Shown piece after piece: positions 1 through 16,479 of a stretch of 64,000 bases of DNA. The position numbers and the translations under genes are program-made. This DNA is from Sphingomonas phyllosphaerae. Lineage in GTDB: Bacteria; Pseudomonadota; Alphaproteobacteria; Sphingomonadales; Sphingomonadaceae. Position 1 is the stretch's first letter, and each line of letters begins with the position of its first letter. The notes beneath the pieces were generated by a model. It did no database searches, was not told where the DNA came from, and saw nothing but the letters and a program-made list of their open reading frames with translations. Location of the stretch: positions 1,495,001 to 1,559,000 of the forward strand of contig JAQIJC010000001.1 in assembly GCA_036946405.1 (NCBI GenBank), read 5' to 3'.

Positions 1-851
1 TCAAGGTTGAGCCCGTCGGTATTCGGACGACGCCCGATCGACACCAGCACATGGCTCGCCTCGATCGTCGTCGCGTCGCCACCCGCGGCGGGCTCGACGG
101 TCAGGATCGCCTTGTCGCCCTCGACCTTGATCGCGGTGACCTTGGTCGACAGCTGGAAGTCGATGCCCTGCTTCTTGAAGATCTTGTTCGATTCCTTACG
201 GATGTCGCCGTCGAACCCTGGCAGGATCTGGTCGAGATATTCGACGCACGTCACCTTTGCGCCGAGGCGGCGCCACACGCTGCCCAGCTCAAGCCCGATC
301 ACCCCGCCGCCGATCACGACCAGATGCTCCGGAACGGTCGGCAGGTCGAGCGCGCCGGTCGAATCCACGATAATCTTCTGGTCGATCTCGACGCCCGGCA
401 GCGGCGTGACGCTGGAGCCGGTCGCGATCACGATGTTCTTCGCGGTCACGGTCTGCCCGGCGACATCGACGCTATGCGCGTCCTTGAACGCGGCGCGGCC
501 CTTCAGCCACGTCACCTTGTTCTTCTTGAACAGATATTCGATGCCGCCGGTCAGCTGCTTCACCGCGTCGCGGCGCTGGCCGTGCATCGTGTCGAGATCG
601 AGTTCGACCGTCGTCTTGATCCCCAGCTTCGCCATCGCGCCATTGGCGGCATGGTCGTACAGCTCCGACGCGTGGAGCAGCGCCTTCGACGGAATGCAGC
701 CGACGTTCAGGCAGGTGCCGCCCAGCGTCTCGCGGCTCTCGGCGCACGCGGTCTTGAGCCCGAGCTGCGCAGCGCGGATCGCCGCGACATAGCCGCCGGG
801 GCCGGCACCGATCACGAGGACGTCATAGTCGTACTGCTGTTCGTCAGCCAT
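1..851 (-). CDS. lpd: Dihydrolipoyl dehydrogenase (E3), C-terminus outside window
   Basis: FAD-dependent E3 of the 2-oxoglutarate dehydrogenase complex; it reoxidises dihydrolipoyl groups and reduces NAD. About 283 residues are visible. The FAD dinucleotide motif GAGPGG is at residues 15-20, the redox disulfide GGTCLNVGC has Cys47 and Cys52, and a second Rossmann motif GGGVIG marks the NAD domain. The frame runs off the left edge, so the dimer interface domain with the catalytic His-Glu pair is not seen. The ATG at 851 is preferred over one six bases upstream because GGAG then sits 8 nt away. It is the last visible gene of the odhA-odhB-lpd series, 129 bp after odhB. Confidence 0.95.
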   Translation of the reverse strand, partial: MADEQQYDYDVLVIGAGPGGYVAAIRAAQLGLKTACAESRETLGGTCLNVGCIPSKALLHASELYDHAANGAMAKLGIKTTVELDLDTMHGQRRDAVKQLTGGIEYLFKKNKVTWLKGRAAFKDAHSVDVAGQTVTAKNIVIATGSSVTPLPGVEIDQKIIVDSTGALDLPTVPEHLVVIGGGVIGLELGSVWRRLGAKVTCVEYLDQILPGFDGDIRKESNKIFKKQGIDFQLSTKVTAIKVEGDKAILTVEPAAGGDATTIEASHVLVSIGRRPNTDGLNL

Positions 852-864
852 TTCCATGTCTCCA

Positions 865-968
865 CCCCGGCGCACGCCGGGGGCCAGTTACGGGCCGGAG
901 ATAGGGACCGCCGCGCCCGGTTACATCTGCTTTCCCAACTGGACCCCGGCGTTCGCCGGGGTGGTGCG
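865..968. repeat. Two REP-like palindromes between odhB and lpd
   Basis: The odhB-lpd gap holds a short palindrome at about 865-883 (CCCCGGCG cac GCCGGGG) and a larger element at 931-968 with tail TTTCCCAACTGGA followed by CCCCGGCG ttc GCCGGGG. The tail plus palindrome recurs at 6285-6318 and 6627-6662, so this is a dispersed repeat family. The stems could also stall RNases or attenuate transcription, but no T-run follows. Confidence 0.75.
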
Positions 969-980
969 TTGGGCTAGGTC

Positions 981-2192
981 TTACAGGTCGATCAGGATGC
1001 GCGTCGGATCCTCGATCGCGTTCTTCAGCGCGACGAGGAAGGTCACCGCCTCGCGGCCGTCGATCAGGCGGTGGTCGTAGCTGAGCGCCAGATACATCAT
1101 CGGCCGCACCACGACCTGACCGTCACGCACCACCGGACGCTCCTCGATGCGGTGCAGGCCGAGCACCGCCGACTGCGGCGGGTTGATGATCGGGGTCGAC
1201 ATCAGCGAGCCGAACACGCCGCCGTTCGAGATTGTGAAGGTGCCGCCCTTCATCTCGTCCATCTTGAGCGTGCCGTCCTTGGCGCGCTTGCCGAAGTCGC
1301 CGATCGTCCTCTCGATGCCCGCGACCGACAGGTCCTGCGCGTCGCGGATCACCGGCACGACCAGGCCGTTCGGCGCGCTGACCGCGACCGAGATGTCGGC
1401 ATAATCGTGGTAGACGATCTCGTCGCCCTCGACCGAGGCGTTGACCGACGGGATGTCCTTCAGCGCCATCGTCGCGGCCTTCACGAAGAAGCCCATGAAG
1501 CCCAGCCGGACGCCGTGCTTCTTCTCGAACAGATCCTTGTACTTGGCGCGCGCCTCGATCACCGCGGTCATGTCGACGTCGTTGAACGTCGTCAGCATCG
1601 CGGCGGTGTTCTGCGCTTCCTTCAGGCGCTTGGCGATCGTCTGGCGCAGGCGCGTCATCTTGACGCGCTCCTCCTTGCGGCCACCCGACGTCGGTGCCGC
1701 AGCCGGTGCGGCCTGCGCTTCCGGCGCGCTCGTCGGCTTGGTCGACGCCGCGGCGGCGACATCTTCCTTGGTCAGGCGACCGTCCTTGCCGGTGCCCTTG
1801 ACCGTCGAGGGATCGACGCCGTGTTCGAGCACCGCGCGACGCACCGACGGCGACAGCGCCGCCGCGGCATCACCCGAGGGCGCGGACGAGGCGGCCGGGG
1901 TCGGGCTTTCGGTCACCGCCGGCTGCGGCGCGGCGCTCTTCGCCGGCGCGCCATCACCGCTCTCGATCGTGGCGATCAGTGCGCCGACCTCGACCGTGTC
2001 GCCGACCTTGACCGCATGCTGCCCCATTACGCCTGCAACGGGTGAGGGGACTTCGACCGAGACCTTGTCGGTCTCGAGGCTCGCAATGGGCTCGTCGGCG
2101 GCGACCGCATCGCCGGGCTGCTTCAGCCATTCGCCGACCGTCGCTTCGGTGATCGATTCGCCCAGCGTGGGGACCAGAACTTCGGTTGCCAT
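981..2192 (-). CDS. odhB (sucB): 2-oxoglutarate dehydrogenase E2, dihydrolipoyllysine succinyltransferase
   Basis: E2 core of the 2-oxoglutarate dehydrogenase complex, transferring succinyl from lipoate to CoA. 403 residues, normal length. Order: lipoyl domain (1-75) with the lipoylated Lys43 in ETDKVSVEV; an Ala/Pro/Ser-rich linker; a peripheral E3-binding domain near 113-150 ([15 protein letters not shown]); a second linker; and the catalytic acetyltransferase domain (about 175-403) with the active-site signature HRLIDG, His374 and Asp378. It lies between odhA and lpd on the same strand, so E1, E2 and E3 are encoded in reaction order. Confidence 0.97.
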
Positions 2193-2240
2193 CTCAAACC
2201 TCGTCGTCGCGGCCGTGGCCGTTAAGTGTCGTTAGCAGAT

Positions 2241-2256
2241 CCCGGCGCATGCCGGG
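2241..2256. repeat. Short palindrome between odhA and odhB
   Basis: CCCGGC gcat GCCGGG, a short member of the same GC-rich palindrome type seen throughout these intergenic gaps. No T-run, so not called as a terminator. Confidence 0.5.
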
Positions 2257-2266
2257 ACCGTGATCG

Positions 2267-5236
2267 TCAGGCGGTTGGCGCCGCTGCCTTCTTCGTCGTC
2301 TCGGCCTCGCGCGTGCGGCGGATTTCGTCGCGCACGTTATGCCCCAAAGCGTCGGCGATCAGCGCGCCCTGTTCCGCCTGGTGACGCTTCATCAGGCCGG
2401 TGGCGGGCGAGGCCGCCGCGGTGCGGCCGGCATAGCGCGGCCGGGCGACGCGCGCCTTGGCGATGCCCAGCGCCTCCTCGATGAACGGCTCGACGAAGAA
2501 CCAGTAACCGTTGTTGCGCGGCTCTTCCTGCGCCCAGATCACCTCCTCGAGGTTAGGCATCCGCGCGATCCGCGCGGCGAGCGCCTCGGTCGGGAACGGA
2601 TAGAGCTGCTCGACGCGGACGATCTGCGTGTTCTTGTCGCCCGCTGCGTCGCGCGCTTCCATCAGGTCGTAGGAGACCTTGCCGGTGCACAGCACCAGCC
2701 GCTTCGTCTCGGTATCCGCCGGTGCCGACGGGTCGGAGAGGATGCGGCGGAAGTGCGAGTCGCCGAGGAAGTCCGCCGCGCTGCTCACCGCCAGCTTGTG
2801 ACGCAGCAGCGACTTGGGCGTGAACACCACCAAAGGCTTGCGGAAGTTGCGGTGCATCTGCCGGCGCAGCAGGTGGAAGTAGTTCGCCGGCGTGGTGCAA
2901 TTCGCGACCTGAATATTGTCGCCGGCGCACAGCTGCAGGAAACGCTCCGGGCGCGCCGAGCTATGCTCCGGACCCTGACCTTCGTAGCCGTGCGGCAACA
3001 GCATCACCAGCCCGTTGGCGCGCAGCCACTTGGCTTCGCCCGACGCGATGAACTGGTCGATCATGATCTGCGCGCCGTTGACGAAGTCCCCGAACTGCGC
3101 CTCCCACATCACCAGAGTCTTCGGGTCTGCGAGCGCATAGCCGTACTCGAACCCGAGCACGCCATATTCGGACAGCGGGCTGTCGAGCACCTCAAAGCTG
3201 CCGTGCGGGATCGTCCACAGCGGCACGAACTTGTGCTCGTCGGTCTGATCGACCCACACCGCATGACGCTGCGAGAAGGTGCCGCGGCCCGAATCCTGAC
3301 CGGACAGGCGGACGCCGTAACCCTCGTGAAGCAGCGAGCCGAACGCCAGCGCCTCGCCGGTCGCCCAGTCGAAGTTGCTGCCGGTTTCGAACATCTGCCG
3401 CTTGGCGTCGAGCACGCGCGACAGCGTCTTGTGGATCGCGATCGTCTCCGGGACCGTGGTCAGCGTGCGACCGATCGAGTCGAACAGCTTTTGCTCGATC
3501 CCGGTCTCGACGCTGCGCCGCGCGCTTTCGGCGTCGGCAGGCGCGTGGAGCCCCGACCAGCGGCCCGCGAACCAGTCGGCCTTGTTCGGCTTGTAGCTCG
3601 CCCCAGCCTCGAATTCGCCCTCGAGCAAGGTCACGTACTGCTTGACGTTGTCGTCGACCCACGCCTGATCCACCACGCCCTCGGCGACCAGCCGCTTGCT
3701 GTAGATGTCGCTGACCGGCGGATGCTCGCGGATCGCCTTGTACATCAATGGCTGGGTGAAGCCCGGTTCGTCGCCCTCGTTGTGGCCGAAGCGGCGATAG
3801 CACCACATGTCGATCACGACGTCGCGGTGGAACTTCTGGCGATATTCGATCGCCATCTTGGTCGCGAACGTGACCGCCTCGGGATCGTCGCCGTTGACGT
3901 GGAAGATCGGTGCCTGCACGCCCTTCGCGACGTCGGACGGGTAGGGCGACGAGCGCGCGAACTGCGGGCTGGTCGTGAAGCCGATCTGGTTGTTGATGAC
4001 GAAGTGGACGCAGCCGCCGGTGTTGTAGCCGCGAATGCCCGAGAAGCCGAGGCACTCCCAGACGATGCCCTGGCCCGCGAAGGCCGCGTCGCCGTGGATC
4101 AGCACCGGCAGCGAGCGCGAATGCGTCTCCAGATCGCCCGCGATCTGCTGGATCGCGCGCGTCTTGCCGAGCACGACCGGATCGGCCGCCTCGAGGTGCG
4201 ACGGGTTGGCGACCAGCGACATATGGACCTTGTGCCCGTCGAACTCGCGGTCAGTGGAGGTGCCGAGGTGATACTTCACGTCGCCCGAGCCGCCGATGTC
4301 GTCGGGGTTGGCCGAGCCGCCGGCGAACTCATGGAAGATCACGCGCAGCGGCTTGCCCATGACGTTGGCGAGCACGTTCAGGCGGCCGCGGTGCGCCATG
4401 CCGAACACGATCTCGTTGACGCCCGCCGCGCCGCCGTACTTGATGACGCTTTCCAGCGCGGGGATCATGCTCTCGCCGCCGTCGAGCCCGAAGCGCTTCG
4501 TGCCGACATATTTGCGGCCGAGGAACTTCTCCCACTGCTCGGCCTCGATCACCTTGTTGAGGATCGCCTTCTTGCCTTGCGCGGTGAACTCGACCTGCTT
4601 GTCCTTGCCCTCCATGCGCTCCTGGAGGAACTTGCGCTCCTCGACATCGGCGATGTGCATGAACTCGAGCCCGACGTTGCCGCAGTAATTGGCGCGCAGC
4701 GTGTCGACCAGTTCGCGGATCGTCGCCCATTGCAGCCCCAGCGAGCCGCCGAGATAGACCGGGCGGTCGATGTCGCTGTCGGAGAAGCCGTGATATTCGG
4801 TGGTCAGATCGGCCGGCAGCTCGCGCAGGCCCGACAGGCCGAGCGGGTCGAGGTTGGCGGCGAGATGCCCGCGGACGCGATAGGTGCGGATCAGCAGCTG
4901 CGCGCGGATCGAGTCCGCCGCCGCCTTGACGATCGCGTCCTGCGACGGCGCTGCGGCGGCCGGGGCTGCGGCGGGCTTCCCGCCTTTTGCGGGCTTGGGC
5001 GCCGGCTCCATCTGCGTCGGGTCGAGCCCGGCGGTCAGGTCGTCGGTGGTGGTCAGTGGCCAGCGCTTGTTGGTCCAGGACGGCGCGCTCATCGAGCCTT
5101 CGAGCCCTTCGAAGAAATTGCGCCAGCCGGTGTCGACCGAATCGGGCGATTCCTTGAAGCGCGCATAGAGCGCGTCGATGAACTGGGGGCTGACGCCTCC
5201 GGCGATGTCGCTGAAATCCTGGCCTTCGTAGCCCAT
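2267..5236 (-). CDS. odhA (sucA): 2-oxoglutarate dehydrogenase E1 component
   Basis: Thiamine-diphosphate E1 that decarboxylates 2-oxoglutarate and reductively succinylates the E2 lipoyl group. 989 residues from the ATG at 5236, which has GGGAAG about 7 nt upstream; an in-frame GTG 42 bases further up adds only a non-conserved leader. The N-terminal E2-binding helix region (DALYARFKESPDSVD) is present, followed by the ThDP domain with HGDAAFAGQG and the metal-side NNQIGF segment, and the transketolase-type pyrimidine-binding domain near residues 630-830. It is an undivided SucA-type protein with no fused E2 domain. Downstream partners odhB and lpd follow on the same strand. Confidence 0.97.
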   Translation of the reverse strand: MGYEGQDFSDIAGGVSPQFIDALYARFKESPDSVDTGWRNFFEGLEGSMSAPSWTNKRWPLTTTDDLTAGLDPTQMEPAPKPAKGGKPAAAPAAAAPSQDAIVKAAADSIRAQLLIRTYRVRGHLAANLDPLGLSGLRELPADLTTEYHGFSDSDIDRPVYLGGSLGLQWATIRELVDTLRANYCGNVGLEFMHIADVEERKFLQERMEGKDKQVEFTAQGKKAILNKVIEAEQWEKFLGRKYVGTKRFGLDGGESMIPALESVIKYGGAAGVNEIVFGMAHRGRLNVLANVMGKPLRVIFHEFAGGSANPDDIGGSGDVKYHLGTSTDREFDGHKVHMSLVANPSHLEAADPVVLGKTRAIQQIAGDLETHSRSLPVLIHGDAAFAGQGIVWECLGFSGIRGYNTGGCVHFVINNQIGFTTSPQFARSSPYPSDVAKGVQAPIFHVNGDDPEAVTFATKMAIEYRQKFHRDVVIDMWCYRRFGHNEGDEPGFTQPLMYKAIREHPPVSDIYSKRLVAEGVVDQAWVDDNVKQYVTLLEGEFEAGASYKPNKADWFAGRWSGLHAPADAESARRSVETGIEQKLFDSIGRTLTTVPETIAIHKTLSRVLDAKRQMFETGSNFDWATGEALAFGSLLHEGYGVRLSGQDSGRGTFSQRHAVWVDQTDEHKFVPLWTIPHGSFEVLDSPLSEYGVLGFEYGYALADPKTLVMWEAQFGDFVNGAQIMIDQFIASGEAKWLRANGLVMLLPHGYEGQGPEHSSARPERFLQLCAGDNIQVANCTTPANYFHLLRRQMHRNFRKPLVVFTPKSLLRHKLAVSSAADFLGDSHFRRILSDPSAPADTETKRLVLCTGKVSYDLMEARDAAGDKNTQIVRVEQLYPFPTEALAARIARMPNLEEVIWAQEEPRNNGYWFFVEPFIEEALGIAKARVARPRYAGRTAAASPATGLMKRHQAEQGALIADALGHNVRDEIRRTREAETTKKAAAPTA

Positions 5237-5274
5237 GTCACGCTTCCCCGGCCGCTCGGCTTCTCTCCTGTGCG

Positions 5275-5354
5275 TCACCCCGGCGAAGGCCGGGGTCCAG
5301 AGCCGCGAGCGGCCCGCCTGCCGCTCTGGATCCCGGCCTGTGCGCCGGGATGAC
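5275..5354. repeat. Double REP-like palindrome between sucD and odhA
   Basis: Two nested GC-rich palindromes: ACCCCGGCG aag GCCGGGGTCCAGAGC on the left and GCTCTGGATCCCGGCC tgtg CGCCGGGATGAC on the right. The pair can fold as one long imperfect hairpin, since CCAGAGC pairs with GCTCTGG. It fills almost the whole gap. Confidence 0.75.
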
Positions 5355-5365
5355 GTCGGGTCGTC

Positions 5366-6256
5366 TTACTTGTTGAGCACGCTCAGCAGCGTCGAGCCGA
5401 GCTCCGAAGGGCTCGCCGCGACCTTGATCCCGGCGTCTTCCATCGCCGCGATCTTGCTCTCGGCATCGCCCTTGCCGCCCGACACGATCGCGCCGGCATG
5501 GCCCATGCGACGCCCCGGAGGCGCGGTGCGGCCCGCGATGAAGCCAGCCATCGGCTTCTTGCGGCCACGCTTGGCCTCGTCGATCAGGAACTGCGCCGCC
5601 TGCTCCTCGGCGTCGCCGCCGATCTCGCCGATCATGATGATCGACTGCGTTTCCTCGTCGGCGAGGAACAGCTCGAGCACGTCGATGAAGTTGGTGCCGT
5701 TGACCGGATCGCCGCCGATCCCGACCGCGGTGGTCTGGCCGAGCCCGGCGTTCGAGGTCTGGAACACCGCCTCATAGGTGAGCGTGCCCGAGCGCGACAC
5801 GACGCCGACCGAGCCCTTCTTGAAGATGTTGCCCGGCATGATGCCGATCTTGCACTCGCCCGGGGTCAGCACGCCCGGGCAGTTCGGGCCGATCAGCCGC
5901 GACTTGCTGCCCGACAGCGCGCGCTTGACGCGGACCATGTCGAGCACCGGAATACCCTCGGTGATCGCGACGATCAGCGGCACCTCGGCATCGATCGCCT
6001 CGAGGATCGAATCCGCGGCGAAGGGCGGCGGCACATAGATGACGCTGGCGTTCGCGCCGGTCTTGGCGACCGCCTCCGCGACGGTGTCGAAGTTCGGCAG
6101 CCCCAGTTCCTCATGGGTGGTGCCGCCCTTGCCCGGCGTGACGCCGCCGACCATCTGCGTGCCGTAATCCAGCGCCGCCTTGGTGTGGAAGGTGCCGGTC
6201 TTGCCGGTCATCCCTTGCGTGATGACCTTGGTGTTCTTGTCGACGAGGATGCTCAA
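5366..6256 (-). CDS. sucD: Succinate-CoA ligase, alpha subunit
   Basis: Alpha subunit of succinyl-CoA synthetase: binds CoA and carries the phosphohistidine intermediate in the substrate-level phosphorylation step of the TCA cycle. 296 residues, full length. The N-terminal CoA-binding Rossmann domain includes [11 protein letters not shown]; the phosphorylated histidine is His253 in [13 protein letters not shown]. The beta subunit gene sucC, which precedes sucD in many bacteria, is not adjacent: upstream is a small GIY-YIG gene and then mdh. The partner must be elsewhere. Confidence 0.97.
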
Positions 6257-6284
6257 TGTCGTCTCCCTAAATTCGGGAAGGATT

Positions 6285-6318
6285 GTGCCCCGGCGAAGGC
6301 CGGGGTCCAGTCGGGAAG
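6285..6318 (+). repeat. Left arm of inverted repeat flanking a GIY-YIG gene
   Basis: GTGCCCCGGCG aag.. followed by CCGGGGTCCAGTCGGGAAGG. The reverse complement of 6627-6662 matches it over about 30 bases with about three mismatches, so the GIY-YIG gene sits between two opposed copies of one REP-like unit. Confidence 0.75.
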
Positions 6319-6322
6319 GCGG

Positions 6323-6619
6323 TCATGGCAGGGCGATGCGATCGTACAGGTCTTCCCAATCGGGATTGAACCCTTCGATCTCGCGCACCTTCCAGGCTCG
6401 CTTCCACTCCTTCATCTGCAGCTCGCGCTGCCGTGCCGCGTCAATGCTGTCATACGCCTCGTACCAAACGAGAAGATGACAGCCGTACTGCCGTGTGAAG
6501 CCACCGATGACGCCGTTGCGATGTTCCCATACTCGCTTGGGAAGGTCGCTGGTCACGCCAAGGTAGATCGTGCCGTTGCGTCTGCTCGCCATGATATAGA
6601 CGAACCCGGCCTTTTCCAC
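6323..6619 (-). CDS. Small GIY-YIG domain protein (YhbQ/UPF0213-like)
   Basis: 98 residues, essentially one GIY-YIG nuclease fold: FVYIMAS and GTIYLGVTSDL give the two signature strands (YLG replaces the second YIG), with an Arg at the start of the following helix and Glu in QRELQMKEW. Related single-domain proteins are widespread, and their role is unclear; they lack the UvrC partner domains. The start is GTG, with GGGAGAAG ten bases upstream lying inside the flanking repeat. It interrupts the mdh-sucD series and is bracketed by inverted repeats, which suggests a small mobile or passenger unit. Confidence 0.85.
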   Translation of the reverse strand: MEKAGFVYIMASRRNGTIYLGVTSDLPKRVWEHRNGVIGGFTRQYGCHLLVWYEAYDSIDAARQRELQMKEWKRAWKVREIEGFNPDWEDLYDRIALP

Positions 6620-6626
6620 TTCAGGG

Positions 6627-6662
6627 CTTCTCCCAACTGGGCCCCGGCCTCCGCCGGGGCAC
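6627..6662 (-). repeat. Right arm of inverted repeat flanking a GIY-YIG gene
   Basis: CTTCTCCCAACTGGGCC CCGGCctccGCCGGGGCAC, the opposed copy of 6285-6318. On the minus strand its GGGAGAAG tail is positioned as the ribosome binding site of the GIY-YIG gene. Confidence 0.75.
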
Positions 6663-6673
6663 GAAGGAAAGTC

Positions 6674-7756
<1,083 letters not shown>

Positions 7757-8851
7757 TTAAGCTGTGCCATGCCCTTCGGCAAGATAGCTTTCGGAGCGCA
7801 TTTCCTCCAGCCGGCTGACCGTCCGCTGGAACTCGAACGCGCCGTCACCGCGTGGGTAGAGCTGGTCGGGTTCGGCGTCGGCGGAGGCCAGCAACTTGAC
7901 CTTGTGCTCGTAGAGCGCGTCGATGAGCTGGACGAAGCGTGCGGCCTCGTTGCGGTTGTCCGGCCCGAGCACCGGGATGCCGACGAGGATCACGGTGTGA
8001 AAACGGCGTGCGATCGCGAGATAGTCGGCGGCGCCGCGCGCTTCGCCGCACAATTTCTTGAACGCGAAAACCGCCACGCCTTTCAATGTCTTGGGTATGC
8101 GCAACGTGCGACCCTGCACGAGCAACTCCTCGGAGGGCACGTGCTGGCGATCCTCGGGCGGGTAGTCGGTGAGGCGGAAGAAGGCGGCGGAGAGGTCGGC
8201 GGTCGCCTGCTCGCCGTTGGGGACGCACCATGTCTTCTGCGCGCCGAGCCGGTCGCGACGGTAATCGACCGGACCGTTGAGGGCGATCACGTCCAGCCGC
8301 TCCTCGACCAAGGCGATAAATCCAAGGAAATGCTCGCGATTCAGGCCGTTCTTGTAGAGGTCGGCCGGTGCGCGGTTGCTGGTCGTCACCACCGTGACCC
8401 CGGCTTCGATCAGCGCGGTGAAGAGTCGCGACAGGATCATGGCGTCGGGCGAGTTCGTCACCATCATCTCGTCGAAGGCGAGCAGCCGTGCTTCGTCGGC
8501 GAGCGCCTCGGCGACGGGGAGGATCGGGTCGCCCTGTTCCTTGCGGCGCTCGGCGGCGATGCGGGCGTGGACCTCAAGCATGAACTCGGCGAAGTGGACG
8601 CGGCGCTTCTTGGCAATGTCGACGTGATGAAAAAAGAGGTCCATTAACATGGACTTGCCGCGACCAACGCCGCCCCACATGTAGATACCGCGCGCAGGGA
8701 TCGAGCGGCGCCGGAACAGGCCGGCGGTGCGCGGCTTCTCCAGCTCGGCGGCCAGCGCATCGAGGCGGGCGGCGCCGGCGGCTTGCTCGGCGTCGGGACG
8801 CAGTTCGTCGGCGGCGATCAGCGTTTCATAGGCGGCGAGCACCTTGCCCAT
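7757..8851 (-). CDS. zapE: Cell division protein ZapE (AFG1-like ATPase)
   Basis: 364 residues from the ATG at 8851. P-loop ATPase of the AFG1/LACE1 family; in E. coli ZapE associates with the Z-ring, and mitochondrial relatives act in protein quality control. Walker A GGVGRGKS is at 60-67, followed by the family segment MLMDLFFHHV; Walker B (LLAFDEMMVTN) is near 135-145, and the sensor-like TTSNRAP follows. The position directly upstream of mdh is typical of alphaproteobacteria. About 290 bp of gene-free DNA separates it from the sdhB terminator side. Confidence 0.93.
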   Translation of the reverse strand: MGKVLAAYETLIAADELRPDAEQAAGAARLDALAAELEKPRTAGLFRRRSIPARGIYMWGGVGRGKSMLMDLFFHHVDIAKKRRVHFAEFMLEVHARIAAERRKEQGDPILPVAEALADEARLLAFDEMMVTNSPDAMILSRLFTALIEAGVTVVTTSNRAPADLYKNGLNREHFLGFIALVEERLDVIALNGPVDYRRDRLGAQKTWCVPNGEQATADLSAAFFRLTDYPPEDRQHVPSEELLVQGRTLRIPKTLKGVAVFAFKKLCGEARGAADYLAIARRFHTVILVGIPVLGPDNRNEAARFVQLIDALYEHKVKLLASADAEPDQLYPRGDGAFEFQRTVSRLEEMRSESYLAEGHGTA

Positions 8852-9067
8852 GTCGTTCCTTCCAGCGTCGATGTTGCTGTGCACAATAAAGGGCTGCTTT
8901 GGGCGAGCCGGCGCGGCGGATCAAGTCGGGGTGCGGTGACGCGTGGTGACGCCTTCGTCGCGGCGGGTGCCGGAACGTGCCCGAAAATACCCCCCTTCGG
9001 CCGCGAACGGTGGCGCGATCCGCGCGATCGGGGCGGCGATCGACAAGCCCGGTCGCAAACGGGAACA

Positions 9068-9101
9068 CAAAAAAACCAGCGCCCCGGACGGGGCGCTGGT
9101 T
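9068..9101 (-). terminator. Rho-independent terminator of sdhB
   Basis: On the minus strand AACCAGCGCCCC gtcc GGGGCGCTGGTT forms a 12-bp stem followed directly by a run of seven T. It begins about 40 bases after the sdhB stop codon. This is the best intrinsic terminator in the left half. Confidence 0.9.
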
Positions 9102-9142
9102 CGTGTTGCGTCGCTCGCGATGACGGCGGCGAGCGCCCGGCG

Positions 9143-9925
9143 TCAGACCAGCCGCTCGACTTCCATCTTCTTGATCTCCGCGATCGCCTTGGCGGGCGAC
9201 AGCCCCTTGGGGCAGGTGTTCGCGCAATTCATGATCGTGTGGCAGCGATAGAGACGGAACGGATCCTCCAGCGCATCGAGCCGCTCGCCGGTCATCTCGT
9301 CGCGGCTGTCGGCGAGCCAGCGATACGCCTGGAGCAGGATCGCCGGGCCGAGGAACTTGTCGCTGTTCCACCAATAGCTGGGGCACGACGTCGAGCAGCA
9401 CGCGCACAGGATGCATTCGTACAGCCCGTCGAGCTTGGCGCGCTCCTCCGGCGACTGGAGCCGTTCCTTGCCGGCGGGCGGCGGGGTGACGGTCTGCAGC
9501 CACGGCGTGATCGACGCATATTGCGCGTAGAAGCGCGTGAAATCGGGGACCAGATCCTTGATGACGTCCATCGCGGGCAGCGGCGTGATCTTGATCTCGC
9601 CCTTCACGTCCTCGATCGCGGTGGTGCAGGCGAGGCCGTTGCGCCCGTCGATGTTCATCGAGCACGACCCGCAAATGCCCTCACGGCACGAGCGGCGGAA
9701 GGTCAGCGACGGATCCTGCTCCGACTTGATCTTGATGAGAGCGTCCAGCACCATCGGACCGCATTCGTCGAGATTGACCTCGAACGTGTCGTAGCGCGGG
9801 TTCTCGCCCGAGTCGGGATCGTAGCGATACACTTTGAAGTTGCGCATCGTGCCGCCCGGTTGCGGCGAGGGATGCTTCTGCCCGCCCTTGATCTTGCTGT
9901 TCTTCGGGAGCGTGAACTCGGCCAT
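9143..9925 (-). CDS. sdhB: Succinate dehydrogenase iron-sulfur subunit
   Basis: Complex II electron-transfer subunit carrying electrons from SdhA FAD to quinone. 260 residues. The ferredoxin-like N-terminal domain has the 2Fe-2S cysteines in CREGICGSC and a later Cys (LACTT); the C-terminal domain has [12 protein letters not shown] and CANTCPKG for the 4Fe-4S and 3Fe-4S clusters. The usual neighbours sdhC, sdhD and sdhA are not present on either side; upstream lie three VOC genes. The gene has its own terminator, so it is probably transcribed alone. Confidence 0.96.
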
Positions 9926-10064
9926 GCGCGCGTCTCGTCTTCGTCAGGGATCGTCGGCGCACAGGGGGCGCACCGGCGCCGTTACTCGGGCGGCGGGTAC
10001 ACGATCGCGAGGCTGGCCGCAAACATGCCCGTCGCCCGCCTAGTTAGCCATTATGCCCCGCGGC

Positions 10065-10535
10065 TCAAGAGGCGATCGCACGGTCCAGCGCCGCGACGTC
10101 GATCCGCACCATCTCCATCATCGCCGCCATCGCCTTGGCCGCGTGCTGCGGGTCGTTCATCAACTCGGTCAGGCGACGCGGCACGATCTGCCACGCCACG
10201 CCCCAGCGATCCCTGAGCCAGCCGCATTGCATCTCCGTGCCGCCATCGGCGAGGAAGGCATCCCAGTAACGGTCGACCTCCGCCTGATCGGCGCAGTCGA
10301 CCGACAGCGACATCGCCTCGCTATGCTGTGGACCCGGGCCGCCGTCGAGCAGCGCGAAGTGGCGGCCGGCGAGCGTGAACTCGACCGTCAGCACCTTGCC
10401 GGCCGAACCGCCGGGATAATCGAGCGGTGCGCGCATGACCCGGTCGATCGCGCTGTTCGGGATCAGCGCGGTATAGAAGCGCGCCTGTTCCTCGGCGGTG
10501 CCGTTGCACCAGATCCACGTCGTGACCTTGTCCAT
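10065..10535 (-). CDS. VOC superfamily protein, PhnB-like
   Basis: 156 residues. Resembles the PhnB / 3-demethylubiquinone methyltransferase-like VOC group: TTWIWCNGTAEEQARFY at the start, a GGPGPQHSEAMSL central strand, and the family feature DRWGVAWQIVP near 110-130. These proteins are usually small metal- or ligand-binding beta-alpha-beta dimers of unknown substrate. The ATG at 10535 overlaps the previous gene's stop codon (TGATG), so translation is coupled. Last of three consecutive VOC genes. Confidence 0.85.
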   Translation of the reverse strand: MDKVTTWIWCNGTAEEQARFYTALIPNSAIDRVMRAPLDYPGGSAGKVLTVEFTLAGRHFALLDGGPGPQHSEAMSLSVDCADQAEVDRYWDAFLADGGTEMQCGWLRDRWGVAWQIVPRRLTELMNDPQHAAKAMAAMMEMVRIDVAALDRAIAS

Positions 10536-11311
10536 CACGCCCTCCGCGGCCCGACGAAGCCGATCCGCGCGCCGTCCGGATCGGCGGCGACGACCGAGAA
10601 GGCGTCACCGGGGATCGGATCCGGGCCTTGCAACACAATGCCACCCATCGCAGTGACCCGCGCGATCGCGGCATCGATATCCTCGACCTCGGCATAGAAG
10701 AGCCAGCCGGGTGCGCCGTTCGGCACCATCGGCATCGTCGCGCCGACGCACGCCGGCCCGGCGTCGAGGAAGCGATAGTCGCCGAGCGGCCCCATCGACA
10801 TGCCCCGTTCCTGGCTCCAGCCGAACAGTCGGGCGTAGAATGCCAGCGCGCGGTCCTGATCGGCGGTGGTCAGCTCGTTCCACACCATCTGCCCGGGCGC
10901 CGTCTCCGGCGGGACCGCGAACGCGCGCGACGGTTCGTCCATCGCGCCGCGCATCACGTAGAAGGGATGTCCTTCCGCATCGGCGAGCAGCGCCATGCGT
11001 CCGACTCCGTCCATATCGACCGGCGGCATCAGCAACGTGCCGCCAGCCTCCTGCGCGGTCGCGATCGCGGCATCGACGTCGTCGACACCGACGTAGAACA
11101 GCCAGCCCGGTGTCGCGTCGGGCTGCGGACGCGGCATCAGCCCCGCGACGCCTTCGCCGCCCGCCGTGCTGACGATCCGATAGTCCATGCCCGCCACGTC
11201 GCCCGATGGCGCGACCTGCCAGCCGAACACATGTTCGTAGAACGCCTGTGCGCGGTCGGCGTCGACGGCGTGATATTCGTACCAGATCGGGGTGCCGTGC
11301 GGATTCCTCAT
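10535..11311 (-). CDS. Tandem VOC (glyoxalase-fold) protein
   Basis: 258 residues formed by two VOC domains (about 5-120 and 135-255), each beginning with a WYEYH / VWNEL strand and containing GWLFY before a DIDAAIA helix. The internal duplication resembles the CFP-30/27 kDa antigen group of glyoxalase-like proteins. Its start overlaps the upstream VOC stop by 4 nt, and its stop overlaps the downstream start, so all three VOC genes form a coupled operon. Substrate unknown; detoxification of electrophiles or antibiotics is possible, but nothing in the sequence selects one. Confidence 0.87.
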   Translation of the reverse strand: MRNPHGTPIWYEYHAVDADRAQAFYEHVFGWQVAPSGDVAGMDYRIVSTAGGEGVAGLMPRPQPDATPGWLFYVGVDDVDAAIATAQEAGGTLLMPPVDMDGVGRMALLADAEGHPFYVMRGAMDEPSRAFAVPPETAPGQMVWNELTTADQDRALAFYARLFGWSQERGMSMGPLGDYRFLDAGPACVGATMPMVPNGAPGWLFYAEVEDIDAAIARVTAMGGIVLQGPDPIPGDAFSVVAADPDGARIGFVGPRRA

Positions 11312-11724
11312 GCTGCGTCTCCGGTCGGGGCGGAGTCGCCCATGTCCATGTGGACGGTTTCCCATGTGTGACCATCGGGATCCTCGAACGCGCCGCCGTA
11401 CATGAACTGCTGGTCGACGATCGGGCGGGTTTCCTTTCCACCTGCGTCGCGCGCGGCGGCATGGATCGCATCGACCGCCGCGCGATCGTCGAACGACAGG
11501 CACAACAAGGCCGCGCTGACCTGATGCGTGTCGGCGATCGGCTTGTCGGTGAAGGTCGCGTAGAAGCCGTGATCGAGCAGCATGACGCTGATCGCGTCCG
11601 ACCAGCGCATCGCGGCGGCGACGTCGTTCGAGAAGTCCGGGTTCTTTTCGAAACCGATCGCCTCGTAAAAGGCGGTGGCACGCGCCACGTCGCCGACCGG
11701 CAGGTTGATGAAGATCATCCGCAT
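11308..11724 (-). CDS. VOC superfamily protein, lactoylglutathione lyase-like
   Basis: 138 residues, a single VOC unit: IFINLPVGDVARATAFYEAIGF at the N-terminus and EDPDGHTWETVHMD at the C-terminus, typical of glyoxalase/bleomycin-resistance-like proteins. First gene of the three-gene VOC operon; a 4-nt overlap (ATGA) couples it to the tandem VOC protein. About 200 bp separates it from the divergent cobS, so both promoters should lie in 11725-11925; no convincing operator was seen there. Confidence 0.85.
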   Translation of the reverse strand: MRMIFINLPVGDVARATAFYEAIGFEKNPDFSNDVAAAMRWSDAISVMLLDHGFYATFTDKPIADTHQVSAALLCLSFDDRAAVDAIHAAARDAGGKETRPIVDQQFMYGGAFEDPDGHTWETVHMDMGDSAPTGDAA

Positions 11725-11925
11725 CGCGCTCGTCCTCTCCGAATCGTTGTCGCGCCATCATGCGCGAACGCCTGCGCGCGGCAAGTGGCGGGAAACCGGT
11801 GTCAAACGCGCGCGTTCACCCCGCATTCCCCAGCCCCGACCCGGCCGGGCGAGGCGTGCGGCGGGTTGACGCGGGCGCGCCGGCTTCGCAGTGGTCGGAA
11901 AACTCCAGCGAAACGGCGTTAACGC

Positions 11926-12930
11926 ATGACCGATATCCCGAACACGCAGCCCGACAGCCGCGACACCACGATCCTCGACGCGCCCGACAAGATGGTGCGC
12001 GTGCGCGACCTGTTCGGGATCGATTCGGACATGGAGGTGCCGGCCTTCTCCGAGGCGGACGAGCGCGTCCCCGATCTCGACCCCGCCTATGTCTTCGATC
12101 CCGACACCACGCTGGCGATCGTCGCCGGCTTCGCGCACAACCGCCGCGTGATGGTGCAGGGCTATCACGGCACCGGCAAGTCGAGCCATATCGAGCAGGT
12201 GGCGGCGCGGCTGAAATGGCCGTGCATCCGCATCAACCTCGACGCGCATATCAGCCGCATCGATCTGGTCGGGCGCGACGCGATCGTGCTGCGCGACGGA
12301 CAGCAGGTGACGGAGTTCCGCGAGGGGTTGTTGCCGTGGGCGCTCCAGACCCCGACCGCTTTGGTGTTCGACGAGTATGACGCGGGGCGACCCGACGTGA
12401 TGTTCGTGATCCAGCGCGTGCTGGAAACCGAGGGCAAGCTGACGCTGCTCGACCAGAATCGCGTGATCCGCCCCAATCCGTATTTCCGGCTGTTCGCGAC
12501 CGCGAATACGGTCGGGCTGGGCGACACCAGCGGGCTGTATCACGGCACGCAGCAGATCAACCAGGGGCAGATGGACCGTTGGAACGTGGTCGTCACGCTC
12601 AACTATCTGCCGGCGGTGACCGAGGCGCGGATCGTGCTGGCCAAGTCGGGCGAGTATGACAAGCCCGAGGGCAAGAAGCTGGTCGAGAACATGGTCCGCG
12701 TCGCCGACCTGACGCGCAAGGGCTTCGTCAACGGCGATATCTCGACGGTGATGAGCCCGCGTACCGTCATTACCTGGGCGCAGAATGCGTTGATCTTCGG
12801 TGACGTCGGGTTCGCGTTCCGGCTGTCGTTCCTCAACAAGTGCGACGAGGCGGAGCGCGCGCTGGTGGCGGAATATTATCAGCGCGTGTTCGGGAAGGAT
12901 TTACCCGAGAGCGTGGTGGCTCGCGGATGA
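11926..12930 (+). CDS. cobS: Cobaltochelatase CobS-like AAA+ ATPase
   Basis: 334 residues. AAA+ subunit that, with CobT and CobN, inserts cobalt in aerobic cobalamin synthesis. Walker A GYHGTGKS at 79-86, Walker [10 protein letters not shown] near 147-155, and a sensor [13 protein letters not shown]. An N-terminal specific region (30-60) is typical of CobS. CobT lies 1.4 kb downstream, but CobN is not in this window, so whether the pair serves cobalamin synthesis cannot be decided here. Its last 51 bp have a diverged duplicate at 13581-13631, and an ATGA overlap links it to the nucleotidyltransferase gene. Confidence 0.93.
12880..12930 (+). repeat. 3' end of cobS, copy A of a duplicated segment
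   Basis: 51 bp encoding [16 protein letters not shown] and the stop codon. The same segment, about 78% identical, recurs at 13581-13631. The two copies bracket the MntA/HepT-like pair. Confidence 0.85.
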
Positions 12931-13220
12931 CCCGCGCCGAGGCATTGCAACGGCTCCGTGCGCATCGCGACGATCTGCGAGCGATGGGGATCGAGCATGT
13001 CGCGATCTTTGGGTCGACGGCGCGCGGTAGCGCCGGTGCGCAGTCGGACCTGGACCTGGCAGTGCGACTTCGGGACGACATGCGATTGGGGTGGGATTTC
13101 TTCACGCTCGACGAACGCGTCGCCGCGCTGCTGGGCGTGCCGGTCGATATCGTTACCGAGCCCGTTTCGCGGCCCCGACTGCAAGCCGAGATCGACCGTG
13201 ACCGCATCGACGCTTTCTGA
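12927..13220 (+). CDS. MntA-like nucleotidyltransferase (antitoxin of HEPN/MNT pair)
   Basis: 97 residues from the ATG at 12927, which overlaps the cobS stop by 4 nt. Minimal nucleotidyltransferase: [18 protein letters not shown] matches the GSX10DXD signature of MntA exactly (Gly29-Ser30, Asp41, Asp43), with a third acidic site plausible at DIV near 79. In type VII HepT/MntA systems this protein neutralises the HEPN RNase by adding AMP to it. The next gene is the HEPN partner, overlapping by 23 bp. Confidence 0.85.
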
Positions 13221-13554
13221 CCGCACGCGATCACGATTGCGCGACATGATCGACGATGCCGATCGCATCCTGCATTTCGTGGACGGACTGACCCTTGCGA
13301 TGTTCGTCGCCGACGAACGCACGGTCTTCGCGGTCGAGCGGTTGCTTCAACGGATCACCGAAGCGGCCGTGCAGATCGCTCCTGCGGAAGCGGCGCAGCT
13401 CGGCCCCGATATTCCCGTCGCGAAGATGAGGGGCTTCGGCAATCGCCTGCGTCACGAATATCGCGAGATCGCCCGCGACGTAATCTTCGACCTGGCCCGC
13501 GTCGAGGTGCCCCTGATCCGTGCGGCCGCCGAACGGGCACTGGAGCGCCGATGA
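13198..13554 (+). CDS. HEPN-domain protein (HepT-like, DUF86), degenerate active site
   Basis: 118 residues from the GTG at 13198, overlapping the MntA-like gene by 23 bp. All-helical HEPN fold of the DUF86 type, with ERLLQRITEAAVQI and the C-terminal MRGFGNRLRHEYREI. The family RNase motif is RX4HXY; aligned on His86 and Tyr88 the arginine position is Gly81, so the catalytic Arg seems lost, although Arg83 and Arg85 lie nearby. The protein may be a weakened or inactive toxin. It sits between cobS and cobT with its antitoxin. Family assignment is firm; loss of activity is inferred. Confidence 0.8.
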   Translation: MTASTLSDRTRSRLRDMIDDADRILHFVDGLTLAMFVADERTVFAVERLLQRITEAAVQIAPAEAAQLGPDIPVAKMRGFGNRLRHEYREIARDVIFDLARVEVPLIRAAAERALERR

Positions 13555-13580
13555 GCACCGATACCTCCTCGTTTGCTTGC

Positions 13581-13631
13581 CAGCGTGTGTTCGGCAAGGA
13601 TCTACCCGGTCGCGTGGTGGCAAAGGGTTGA
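13581..13631 (+). pseudogene. Degenerate duplicate of the cobS 3' end, copy B
   Basis: Encodes [16 protein letters not shown] then TGA in open frame, about 78% identical to cobS bases 12880-12930, without any start signal. It is a scar: either the original cobS tail left behind when the toxin-antitoxin module arrived with a replacement tail, or the reverse. Confidence 0.85.
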
Positions 13632-13677
13632 TGTCAGGGGTGGGCTAAGGTAGTTAGTCCACCGGAGGAGACGAGCG

Positions 13678-13962
13678 ATGGCCGAGGCCGATCCGCAGAA
13701 GACCTTCAACGTTCACGAGGCGAAGACGCAATTGTCGCGGCTGATCGAGCGCGCCCATGCGGGCGAGGAGATCGTGCTGGCCAAGGCGGGCGTTCCTTAT
13801 GCCAAGCTGGTGCCTATCGATCCGCCGGTGCCAGCGCGGCGGGTGCCGGGACGGTTCCGAGGGTTGATGGACATGTCGCCGGAAGAGGCGGTCGCCTCCT
13901 GCTTCACCGACGCGGAACTGGACGAGATCGAGAACCGCAGCCTCTTCCCACCGGAGGATTGA
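13678..13962 (+). CDS. Phd/YefM-type antitoxin
   Basis: 94 residues with a strong ribosome binding site (GGAGGAG). The N-terminal DNA-binding domain TFNVHEAKTQLSRLIERA and the following GEEIVLAKAGVPYAKLVP strand are typical of Phd-like antitoxins; the C-terminal tail (FRGLMDMSPEEAVASCFTDA) would wrap the toxin. It is expected to bind the PIN toxin encoded directly after it and to repress its own promoter in the short gap 13632-13677. Confidence 0.92.
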   Translation: MAEADPQKTFNVHEAKTQLSRLIERAHAGEEIVLAKAGVPYAKLVPIDPPVPARRVPGRFRGLMDMSPEEAVASCFTDAELDEIENRSLFPPED

Positions 13963-14348
13963 TGCGGCTGTTGCTGGATACCCATGCGCTGCTTTGGTGG
14001 TGGTTCGACGACGCGATGCTGCCGGAACGGGCAGGGGCGGCCATCGGCGATCGCGCCAATGAAGTCTACGTCAGTGCTGCGTCGGGCTGGGAGATCGCGA
14101 CCAAGATGCGCAAGGGGCATTTGCTCGGGCTCGCCGACCACATGGCGAATTTCGAACGCTATCTGGCCGATGACGGGTTTCGCGCGTTGTCGATCACGAT
14201 GGCGCATGGCGTGCGCAGCGGTGCGCTGCCGGGCGCTCATAAAGACCCTTTCGACCGCATGTTGGCCGCTCAGGCCCTGATGGAGAACCTGACGCTGATG
14301 ACGTGCGATAAGGTTATGGCGAATTTCGGCTGTGAGACGTTCTGGTAA
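13962..14348 (+). CDS. PIN-domain toxin (VapC-like RNase)
   Basis: 128 residues. Starts at the ATG overlapping the antitoxin stop (TGATG) with GGAGG 4 nt upstream. PIN-domain acidic residues are all present: Asp6 in [10 protein letters not shown], Glu44 in SGWEIATK, Asp95 in [12 protein letters not shown] and Asp116 in MTCDK. Predicted Mg-dependent endoribonuclease inhibited by the Phd-type partner. Its stop overlaps the cobT start by one base (TAATG), so the toxin and cobT are translationally coupled, an unusual arrangement for a TA module. Confidence 0.92.
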
Positions 14349-16171
14349 TGACCACCGACACCCCCCTCGATCTGTTCAAGGCCGTGCTCGGCGGAACGGC
14401 GCGTGCGCTGTCCGACGAAGCGGAGGTGGAACTCGCCTATACCGCCGATGCGCCGGTGCAGTCCGGCAAGCATCTGCGCGTGCCGATGCCGGCGCGGACC
14501 TTGCCGGCCGAGCAGGTGGCGGAGGCGCGCGGGTTCGCCGATGGCTTCGCACTGCGGTTGCGGCACCACGACGACGCGCTCCACGCACGCGGCGCGCCGG
14601 CGGAGGCGAATGCGCGCTCGGTCTATGATGCGATCGAGACGGCGCGCGTCGAGGCGCTGGGCAGCCGCGGCTATGACGGGATCGCCGACAATCTCGCCCG
14701 CGCGCTCGACGTGCGGTTGCGGAGCGACCCGATCACGCGCGCGCGGACCAAGAGCGAGGTGCCGCTCGCCTCGGCGCTGGGGCTGATGGTGCGCGAGGCG
14801 CTGACCGGGCGGCTGCCGCCGGTCGAAGCCGAGCCGGGGCTGGCGTTGGTGCGCGAGTGGATCGACGGGAAGGTCGACCTGTCCGCGCTCGCGCTGGCGC
14901 TCGACGACCAGCGCGCCTTTCAAGGGCTGACGCGCAAGTTGCTCGAACAGCTCGAACTCGTCGAGGGCGAGCAGGAGCCGCAGGACAGCGACGAGGGCGG
15001 CGAGGACGAGGAAGGCGAGGACGGGCAGGACACCGACGAGGCCGACGAGGGCGAGGCGGAAGGGTCGGAGGGCGAGTCCGAGGTCGAGGCGCGCGGCCAG
15101 CAGCGTGACGATCAGTCGCAGGAAGGCGAGAGCGAACAGCTCGAAGGCGACGATATCGACGACGCCGAGGGCGAGCCGGGCGACGATGGCGAGGAGGGGA
15201 TGCAGCCGGTGCGCCCCAACCGCCCGCCCGCCGACCTGTCCGCGCAGTTCGACTATAAGGTCTGGACCGAGCGGTTCGACGAGGTCGTCGCGGCGACCGA
15301 ATTGTGCGACGCCGAGGAACTGGCGCGGCTGCGCGGCTATCTCGACCAACAGCTCGTCCATCTGCAATCGGCGGTGTCGAAGCTCGCCAATCGCCTCCAG
15401 CGGCGGTTGATGGCGCAGCAATCGCGGTCGTGGGACTTCGATCAGGAAGAGGGATTGCTCGACGCGGCGCGGCTGGCGCGGGTGGTGGTCAATCCGACGC
15501 AGTCGCTGAGCTACAAGATCGAGCGCGATACCGACTTCCGCGACACGGTGGTGACGCTGCTGATCGACAATTCGGGATCGATGCGCGGTCGGCCGATCTC
15601 GATCGCGGCGATCAGCGCCGATATCCTTGCGCGGACGCTGGAGCGGTGCGGGGTGAAGACCGAGATCCTCGGCTTCACGACGCGCGCGTGGAAGGGCGGG
15701 CAGAGCCGCGAGACGTGGCTGGCCGCCGGACGCCCGCCGCAGCCGGGGCGGCTCAACGACGTCCGCCACATCGTCTACAAGCGCGCCGACGAGCCGTGGC
15801 GGCGCGCGCGTCCCGCGCTGGGACTGATGATGCGCGAGGGGCTGCTCAAGGAGAATATCGACGGCGAGGCGCTGTTGTGGGCGCATGCGCGGATGATGGC
15901 GCGGCCGGAAGAGCGGCGCATCCTGATGGTGATTTCGGACGGCGCGCCGGTCGACGATTCGACGCTGAGCGTCAATTCGGGGTCATATCTGGAGCGGCAT
16001 CTGCGGCAGGTGATCGCGTGGATCGAGAAGCGTTCGCCGGTCGAGCTGGTCGCGATCGGGATCGGGCATGACGTGACGCGCTATTACAGCCGCGCGGTGA
16101 CGATCATGGATGCCGAGCAGCTGGGCGGCACGATCATCGAGCAGCTCGCGGCGTTGTTCGATGCGGAGTGA
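14348..16171 (+). CDS. cobT: Cobaltochelatase CobT-like subunit
   Basis: 607 residues. N-terminal CobT domain (1-200), a long Glu/Asp-rich linker (about 205-290), and a C-terminal von Willebrand A domain with the MIDAS motif DNSGSMRG near 406-413 and a second metal site [10 protein letters not shown] near 527. In the cobaltochelatase it forms ring complexes with CobS. The start overlaps the PIN toxin stop. The separation from cobS by four toxin-antitoxin genes is atypical; cobS and cobT are normally adjacent. Confidence 0.93.
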
Positions 16172-16479
16172 CGTCGGTTGCCGGACCGGCGCGTGACACG
16201 ATCGTGATCGCGCCACCGCCGGGCGGCTTCGTCGGACCGGTCAAGCGCTCGGTGACGATTGCCGGCCACGCGACCTCGGTCAGTCTCGAGCCGGTGTTCT
16301 GGACCGCGCTGGAACAGGCGGCATCGGCGCACGCCCTCCCGCTGTCGGCGCTGGTCGCGCGCATCGATGCATTGCGCATCGCGCAGGACGATCCGCCCAA
16401 CCTCGCCAGCGCGTTGCGATCCTGGCTGGTCAGCCGATTGGCCACGTTCAGCGACAATGATGCGATCCAATCTCATTAG
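16168..16479 (+). CDS. Ribbon-helix-helix domain protein (RHH_4-like)
   Basis: 103 residues, GTG start overlapping the cobT stop by 4 nt. The core [20 protein letters not shown] followed by two helices and [12 protein letters not shown] resembles the alphaproteobacterial ribbon-helix-helix family 4, in which the first strand would contact DNA. Probably a small regulator co-expressed with cobT; the target is unknown. Confidence 0.75.

What the first reader, a model, noticed from the sequence alone, without database searches (positions are those of the whole stretch)
12880..13631. MntA/HepT-like pair bracketed by a duplicated cobS 3' end
The last 51 bp of cobS (12880-12930) recur at 13581-13631 with about 78% identity and an open [16 protein letters not shown] stop. 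The TA pair sits exactly between, as if it came in with a cobS-tail homology or the element targets the gene end and regenerates it, as integrons or tRNA-targeting islands do.
Basis: partly seen in the sequence, partly recalled or inferred. Interest (0 to 1): 0.72.

Follow-up and report, generated by a model that had tools for sequence, protein, structure and literature searches.

The report
Recombination scar at toxin-antitoxin swap site
In sphingomonad bacteria two conserved neighbouring genes often hold one of several unrelated toxin-antitoxin pairs between them, and here a second pair was added beside an older one, leaving a short copy of the neighbouring gene's end as a scar that suggests how the new pair got in.

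Summary
The repeat is real: the last 51 bp of cobS recur at 13581-13631 (40/51 identical, z 14.6 against shuffles). It is not the mark of a site-specific element. The cobS-cobT junction is a variable site in this genus. Of 120 junctions read through to cobT, 41 are empty, 29 hold mntA/hepT, 15 phd/pin, 33 something else, and 2 (this genome and G092) hold both pairs; only those 2 show a second cobS tail. Single-tail relatives show that tail 2, its 46-bp spacer and phd/pin are the old arrangement. So mntA/hepT most likely came second, bringing its own cobS end (tail 1) and about 29 nt of a cobT start (13551-13580), and displaced the old tail downstream. This fits homologous recombination anchored in cobS with an illegitimate right end, as proposed for Vibrio T6SS effector-immunity modules. 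In the genus this HepT lineage is nearly confined to the site (33 of 35 matches beside cobS).

The parts
11926..12930 (+). cobS (334 aa), with tail copy 1 as its present 3' end
   Evidence: TIGR01650 CobS equivalog 602 bits, cut-off 559
12880..12930 (+). tail copy 1, inferred to have come in with mntA/hepT; its stop overlaps the mntA start
12927..13220 (+). mntA-like antitoxin (97 aa) with GSX10DXD motif
   Evidence: PF01909; NCBIfam MntA_antitoxin 45 bits, below its cut-off of 60; PADLOC PDC-S09; motif
13198..13554 (+). hepT-like toxin (118 aa, GTG start assumed), without the RX4HXY motif
   Evidence: PF01934 57.7 bits; NCBIfam HepT_toxin 30 bits, below its cut-off of 60; motif
13551..13580 (+). 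relic resembling the first ~29 nt of a cobT gene; its ATG overlaps the hepT stop
   Evidence: alignment and shuffles, position
13581..13631 (+). tail copy 2: displaced old 3' end of cobS; with the relic it makes an open 26-codon frame
13639..13663 (.). palindrome before phd, probable operator of phd/pin (imperfect here)
   Evidence: arms beyond all 20 shuffles in 14 of 17 phd/pin loci
13678..13962 (+). phd (Phd/YefM antitoxin, 94 aa)
   Evidence: PF02604
13962..14348 (+). PIN-domain toxin (128 aa)
   Evidence: PF01850
14348..16171 (+). cobT (607 aa)
   Evidence: TIGR01651 831 bits, cut-off 759

Best explanation
The cobS-cobT junction of Sphingomonas and its kin is a chromosomal exchange site that holds alternative toxin-antitoxin pairs. 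The ancestor of this genome had cobS-phd-pin-cobT. DNA from a relative with cobS-mntA-hepT-cobT then recombined in. Its left end was anchored by homology inside cobS; its right end, about 29 bases into the incoming cobT, was joined to the resident cobS 51 bases before the stop. The new pair was therefore added beside the old one instead of replacing it, and the old cobS end was left between them as a scar. Shown: the single, empty and stacked states, the scar, and its spacing. Inferred: the order of events, the crossover in cobS and the illegitimate right join. That HepT acts as an RNase neutralised by MntA, and PIN by Phd, follows from the families and was not tested.
For: Tail 2 lies 46 bp before phd, as the cobS stop does in single-tail G249, G034, G255 and G273. 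G092 tail 2 is 50/51 to the G249 cobS end, and its spacer is 43/46 to G249 and 44/46 to G034. G249, G034 and G255, which group with G000 and G092 (98% bootstrap), have phd/pin alone. mntA/hepT is 92-94% identical between G000 and G092 but 72-79% to other carriers, while flanks, phd and pin are about equally alike across the group. The relic before tail 2 aligns to cobT starts and its ATG overlaps the hepT stop. Second tails appear only in the 2 stacked loci. 33 of 35 HepT matches in 295 genus genomes lie beside cobS.
Against: Branches inside the five-species group have only 40-59% support, so order and shared ancestry of the stacked state are not firm. The crossover inside cobS cannot be placed, because cobS is too conserved. 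The cobT-start match is not exceptional in a free scan of the region (z 0.9 and 1.1); it rests on position and on 1 of 300 and 4 of 300 shuffles. The tail alone does not identify a class: G092 tail 2 is also 49/51 to an mntA/hepT genome, and G000 tail 2 is only 44/51 to its best match. G000's own spacer is only 36-38/46 to the group. No microhomology was found at the right join.
Confidence: 0.72

Rival explanations
1. Reverse order: the locus was cobS-mntA-hepT-cobT, and phd/pin came second with its own upstream cobS tail, joined into the start of the resident cobT.
For: It gives the same final order; the relic would then be the resident cobT start. Both TA classes occur alone in the genus.
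Against: The three other members of the five-species group have phd/pin alone, and phd, pin and cobT are about as alike across the group as the other flanks.
Confidence: 0.13
2. Tandem route: a transient duplicate of the cobS-cobT segment carrying both alleles lost the stretch between the first cobT start and the second cobS end.
For: It gives the same product without an illegitimate insertion, and needs only one deletion joint.
Against: No tandem intermediate was seen in the 140 loci read (not searched for specially).
Confidence: 0.1
3. A site-specific element inserts at the cobS 3' end and regenerates it, as integrons or tRNA-targeting islands do.
For: Exact position at the gene end; one site occupied by different cargo.
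Against: None of 29 mntA/hepT-only and 15 phd/pin-only loci has a comparable second tail. No recombinase in the few inserts annotated. Distances from cobS stop to mntA start vary.
Confidence: 0.03
4. The 26-codon frame of relic plus tail 2 is kept as a small functional peptide or as a translational bridge.
For: The frame is open in G000, and in G092 as read from the sequence.
Against: Tail 2 in G000 has changed residues (GR for ES) and there is no ribosome or conservation evidence; two sequences are too few.
Confidence: 0.02

Closest known systems
Displacement of T6SS effector-immunity modules in Vibrio cholerae by homology-facilitated illegitimate recombination (PMC5361080; passages read)
   Same: A toxin module enters at a core locus through a homologous upstream anchor and a non-homologous right end; the older module is shifted downstream with the 3' end of the upstream gene left behind.
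   Different: Here the cargo is an intracellular toxin-antitoxin pair, the anchor is the unrelated core gene cobS, and both pairs are intact.
Plastic TA insertion loci in enterobacteria: relA-mazG and folA-apaH intergenic regions (PMC7167474; passages read)
   Same: Different TA pairs, other elements or nothing between the same two core genes in different strains.
   Different: The review says the mechanism of TA movement is unelucidated; here a scar bears on it, and the pairs are stacked.
Type VII HepT/MntA TA system (PMC7641770; passages read)
   Same: HEPN plus MNT gene pair; MntA with GSX10DXD.
   Different: HepT here has GNxLRHxY in place of RX4HXY.
Core defence hotspots of Pseudomonas aeruginosa (PMC10250203; abstract and outline seen)
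   Same: Variable defence or TA-like cargo between conserved genes.
   Different: Those are kilobase islands (medians 26 and 6 kb); this site mostly holds one two-gene pair.

Membership tests
Type VII HepT/MntA TA (class I) | Adjacent HEPN (PF01934) and MNT (PF01909) genes | tested here: met
Type VII HepT/MntA TA (class I) | GSX10DXD in MntA | tested here: met
   window yes; 30 of 31 loci
Type VII HepT/MntA TA (class I) | RX4HXY in HepT | tested here: not met
   0 of 31 loci; a looser R-X4-6-H occurs somewhere in 10 of 31
Type VII HepT/MntA TA (class I) | NCBIfam equivalog cut-offs | tested here: not met
   45.3 and 30.1 bits against 60 each
Type VII HepT/MntA TA (class I) | HepT RNase toxicity blocked by adenylylation | not testable with these tools
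   needs bench work
Phd/PIN type II TA | Phd/YefM antitoxin next to a PIN toxin | tested here: met
   PF02604 and PF01850
Site-specific element that regenerates its target gene end | Duplicated gene end in every occupied site | tested here: not met
Homology-facilitated illegitimate recombination product | One homologous end | tested here: inconclusive
   crossover in cobS not placeable
Homology-facilitated illegitimate recombination product | One non-homologous joint | tested here: met
   cobT-start relic fused to cobS tail, no microhomology at the joint

The most novel reading that the evidence does not exclude
The cobS-cobT junction is a dedicated toxin-antitoxin exchange locus: two unrelated TA lineages have become residents of this one site in sphingomonads and move between species almost only by allelic exchange through cobS and cobT, with rare stacking. 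They may be kept there because they work with the apparently orphan CobS/CobT pair, for example in phage defence (MntA matches the PADLOC candidate PDC-S09; no CobN found in this genome).
Probability: 0.25. Interest if true: 0.75.

Novelty: new variant of a known kind. Interest (0 to 1): 0.48.

Why it matters
[quoted passage not shown] This locus offers empty, single-pair and stacked states in near relatives, plus a scar that records the ends of one import. It suggests that TA pairs without mobility genes travel as passengers of flanking core genes, which can be tested by transformation in laboratory strains.

Tried and rejected
Microhomology between the cobT start and the cobS end at the right join: none at the joint. 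Further scars in other junctions: none convincing. The next tail hits are G273 (z 5.0, about 136 bases after the cobS stop, inside phd) and G189 (z 4.4); G087 has a cobT-start hit of z 4.9 that was not followed up. Among 80 named loci the best is L099, an alphaproteobacterial MAG, at z 6.3, not followed up. Whether the first residues of cobT tell the cargo class: they do not. TA and cobT divergence: loosely correlated for hepT and mntA (r 0.31, 0.27), more for pin and phd (0.66, 0.62). Promoter/terminator scan: nothing. Literature on TA genes at cobS/cobT: searches listed no paper about it in title or abstract; this covers open-licence PMC papers only, and the listed papers were not opened.

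Rows dropped and sampling: G277 was left out because its cobS is split over contigs. In 20 of 140 loci cobT was not seen, partly because the contig or stretch ends. Of 140 genomes fetched, 110 were taken from the list, which is ranked by cobS similarity and from which some were skipped. The other 30 were added by hand, ten of them because they had a HepT match, so class frequencies are not an unbiased sample. The fuller figure is HepT beside cobS in 32 of 295 genomes. No control was run on other adjacent gene pairs, so that cobS-cobT is an outlier is not shown. Structure prediction was not used.

Full report
WHAT IS THERE. The repeat is real: 12880-12930 and 13581-13631 match at 40 of 51 bases. 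Order on the + strand: cobS 11926-12930; mntA-like 12927-13220; hepT-like 13198-13554; a 30-base stretch 13551-13580; the second cobS tail 13581-13631; a palindrome 13639-13663; phd 13678-13962; PIN toxin 13962-14348; cobT 14348-16171. CobS and CobT pass their NCBIfam cut-offs; the others match NTP_transf_2, HepT-like, PhdYeFM and PIN in Pfam. TIGR02257 finds no CobN in this genome but matches in 5 of 14 control genomes, so CobS/CobT look like an orphan pair here. The assembly's only two PF01934 matches are the gene here and one on contig C5.

IS IT MORE THAN CHANCE. I scanned 99 cobS-downstream regions for a second copy of each one's own cobS end, with 60 shuffles each. G092 scores z 24.0, this genome 14.6, the next 5.0. 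Among 80 named loci the best is 6.3.

THE SITE IN RELATIVES. CobS is found in 289 of 295 genus genomes; named relatives of the CobS are Sphingomonas and near genera. I fetched the junction in 140 genomes and used 139 (G277 dropped), plus contig C5 of the own assembly, 140 loci in all. The sample leans to close relatives and to HepT carriers (see Tried and rejected). In 120 loci cobT was seen downstream: 41 empty (gap 40 bp or less), 29 mntA/hepT, 15 phd/pin, 2 both (G000, G092), 33 other. The others include a third TA type (DUF433 with DUF5615 in G181), sulfotransferase-like, PEP-CTERM, HTH/WYL and methionine-synthase-like proteins, proteins without a Pfam match, and short gaps without a long ORF. 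On a cobS tree of the 120 loci with the tail left out, mntA/hepT needs 20 changes (100 shuffles: 23-31) and phd/pin 12 (14-17). Cargo is patchy, with some phylogenetic signal. Sister pairs differ: G002 has mntA/hepT and G046 is empty; G273 has phd/pin and G035 is empty (both pairs 100% in the joint tree).

RESIDENT LINEAGES. Of 35 HepT matches in 33 of 295 genus genomes, 33 lie within 1 kb of cobS; the other two are weak (E about 1e-4). In the family sample (397 genomes, 26 matches) 12 have cobS or cobT within 1.5 kb, or 9 of 23 without the own assembly's two and one of the same genus. In the class sample 0 of the 29 fetched loci other than this one do; not every match was fetched. For PIN (matches in 103 of 295 genomes), of 47 matches of at least 105 bits I knew the cobS place for 27: 24 adjacent, 3 not; of 15 weaker matches checked, none adjacent. 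Both toxin lineages are thus largely residents of this site in the genus, and less so outside it.

WHERE EACH TAIL COMES FROM. In single-tail phd/pin genomes G249, G034, G255 and G273 the cobS stop lies 46 bp before phd; in G000 and G092 tail 2 does. G092's spacer is 43/46 to G249 and 44/46 to G034, and its tail 2 is 50/51 to the G249 cobS end. G000 has drifted more: spacer 36-38/46 to that group, tail 2 44/51 to G249. Tail 2 is therefore the old cobS end by place and by likeness. The tail alone does not identify a class: G092 tail 2 is also 49/51 to an mntA/hepT genome, G099.

THE RELIC BEFORE TAIL 2. Bases 13551-13580 begin with an ATG that overlaps the hepT stop, where cobT begins in several cobS-mntA-hepT-cobT loci. 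The G000 stretch aligns to the cobT start of G273 at 23 of 29 columns with one gap. Of 300 shuffles, 1 (G000) and 4 (G092) reach the best score against 120 cobT starts. In a free scan of the region the match is unexceptional (z 0.9 and 1.1), but in both genomes the best hit falls at this position and at cobT base 1. Relic and tail are open for 26 codons; nothing shows translation.

ORDER OF EVENTS. G000, G092, G249, G034 and G255 form one group (98% bootstrap; inner branches 40-59%). G249, G034 and G255 have phd/pin alone. cobS, cobT, most flanks, phd and pin are about equally alike across the group, while mntA/hepT is 92-94% identical to G092 only and 72-79% to the other four carriers compared. 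So phd/pin is most likely old here, and mntA/hepT was added in an ancestor of G000 and G092 or passed between them.

HOW IT PROBABLY WORKED. Shown: empty, single and stacked states, the scar and its spacing, and the near-confinement of this HepT lineage to the site in the genus. Inferred: import from another cobS locus, a crossover inside cobS (not placeable), and a non-homologous right join (no microhomology). The closest published model is displacement of T6SS effector-immunity modules by homology-facilitated illegitimate recombination (PMC5361080, passages read). Reverse order, and a transient tandem copy followed by deletion, would give the same product.

REGULATION. A palindrome of the form TGGACTAA-n-TTAGTCCA precedes phd. 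Its arms beat all 20 plain shuffles in 14 of 17 phd/pin loci and not in G059, G225 and G283. It is probably the pair's operator. mntA overlaps the cobS stop here and probably shares the cobS transcript (inference).

MEMBERSHIP. MntA keeps GSX10DXD in 30 of 31 loci. HepT has RX4HXY in 0 of 31; 30 of 31 read GNx[LM]RHxY. I call it HepT-like, not a class I type VII toxin; PMC11586414 (passages read) says only class I HEPN has the canonical motif. The same GN..RH form occurs in HepT-like proteins elsewhere in the class, so it is not peculiar to this site.

VERDICT. The pair probably came with a cobS end, but not as a site-specific element. The double tail itself is one recombination scar. The wider find is a TA exchange site between cobS and cobT, which searches (open-licence papers, listings only) did not show as described. 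Whether this junction is an outlier among gene pairs was not tested.

Noticed in passing
contig C5 of the own assembly (L003, 17,837 bases): C5 is syntenic with window 286-16431 at about 76-88% identity, repeats core genes such as sdhB, cobS and cobT, and groups with G265. The assembly is rated 4.2% contaminated, so C5 is probably a contaminant from another sphingomonad.
   Followed up: partly
window 13198-13554 and 30 further loci: The HepT-like toxins read GNx[LM]RHxY where type VII HepT has RX4HXY, with the expected Arg replaced by Gly; either a different active site or class.
   Followed up: partly
window 11926-16171: CobS and CobT are present but CobN was not found in the genome (TIGR02257), so the pair may do something other than cobalt chelation.
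   Followed up: no
window 13639-13663: A conserved palindrome before phd, kept in loci whose toxins are only about 50% identical; a likely operator.
   Followed up: partly
L013 2515-3119 (G181): A third TA type, DUF433 with a DUF5615 PIN-like toxin, sits in the same cobS-cobT junction.
   Followed up: partly
G168 and G182 junctions (L012, L014): Their hepT reads out of register in the middle and the mntA of G182 lacks its motif, as if these copies are decaying.
   Followed up: no
G046 and G278 junctions (L202, L205): In these empty junctions cobT starts with GTG, and many other empty junctions seem to start with GTG or TTG where loaded ones have ATG.
   Followed up: no
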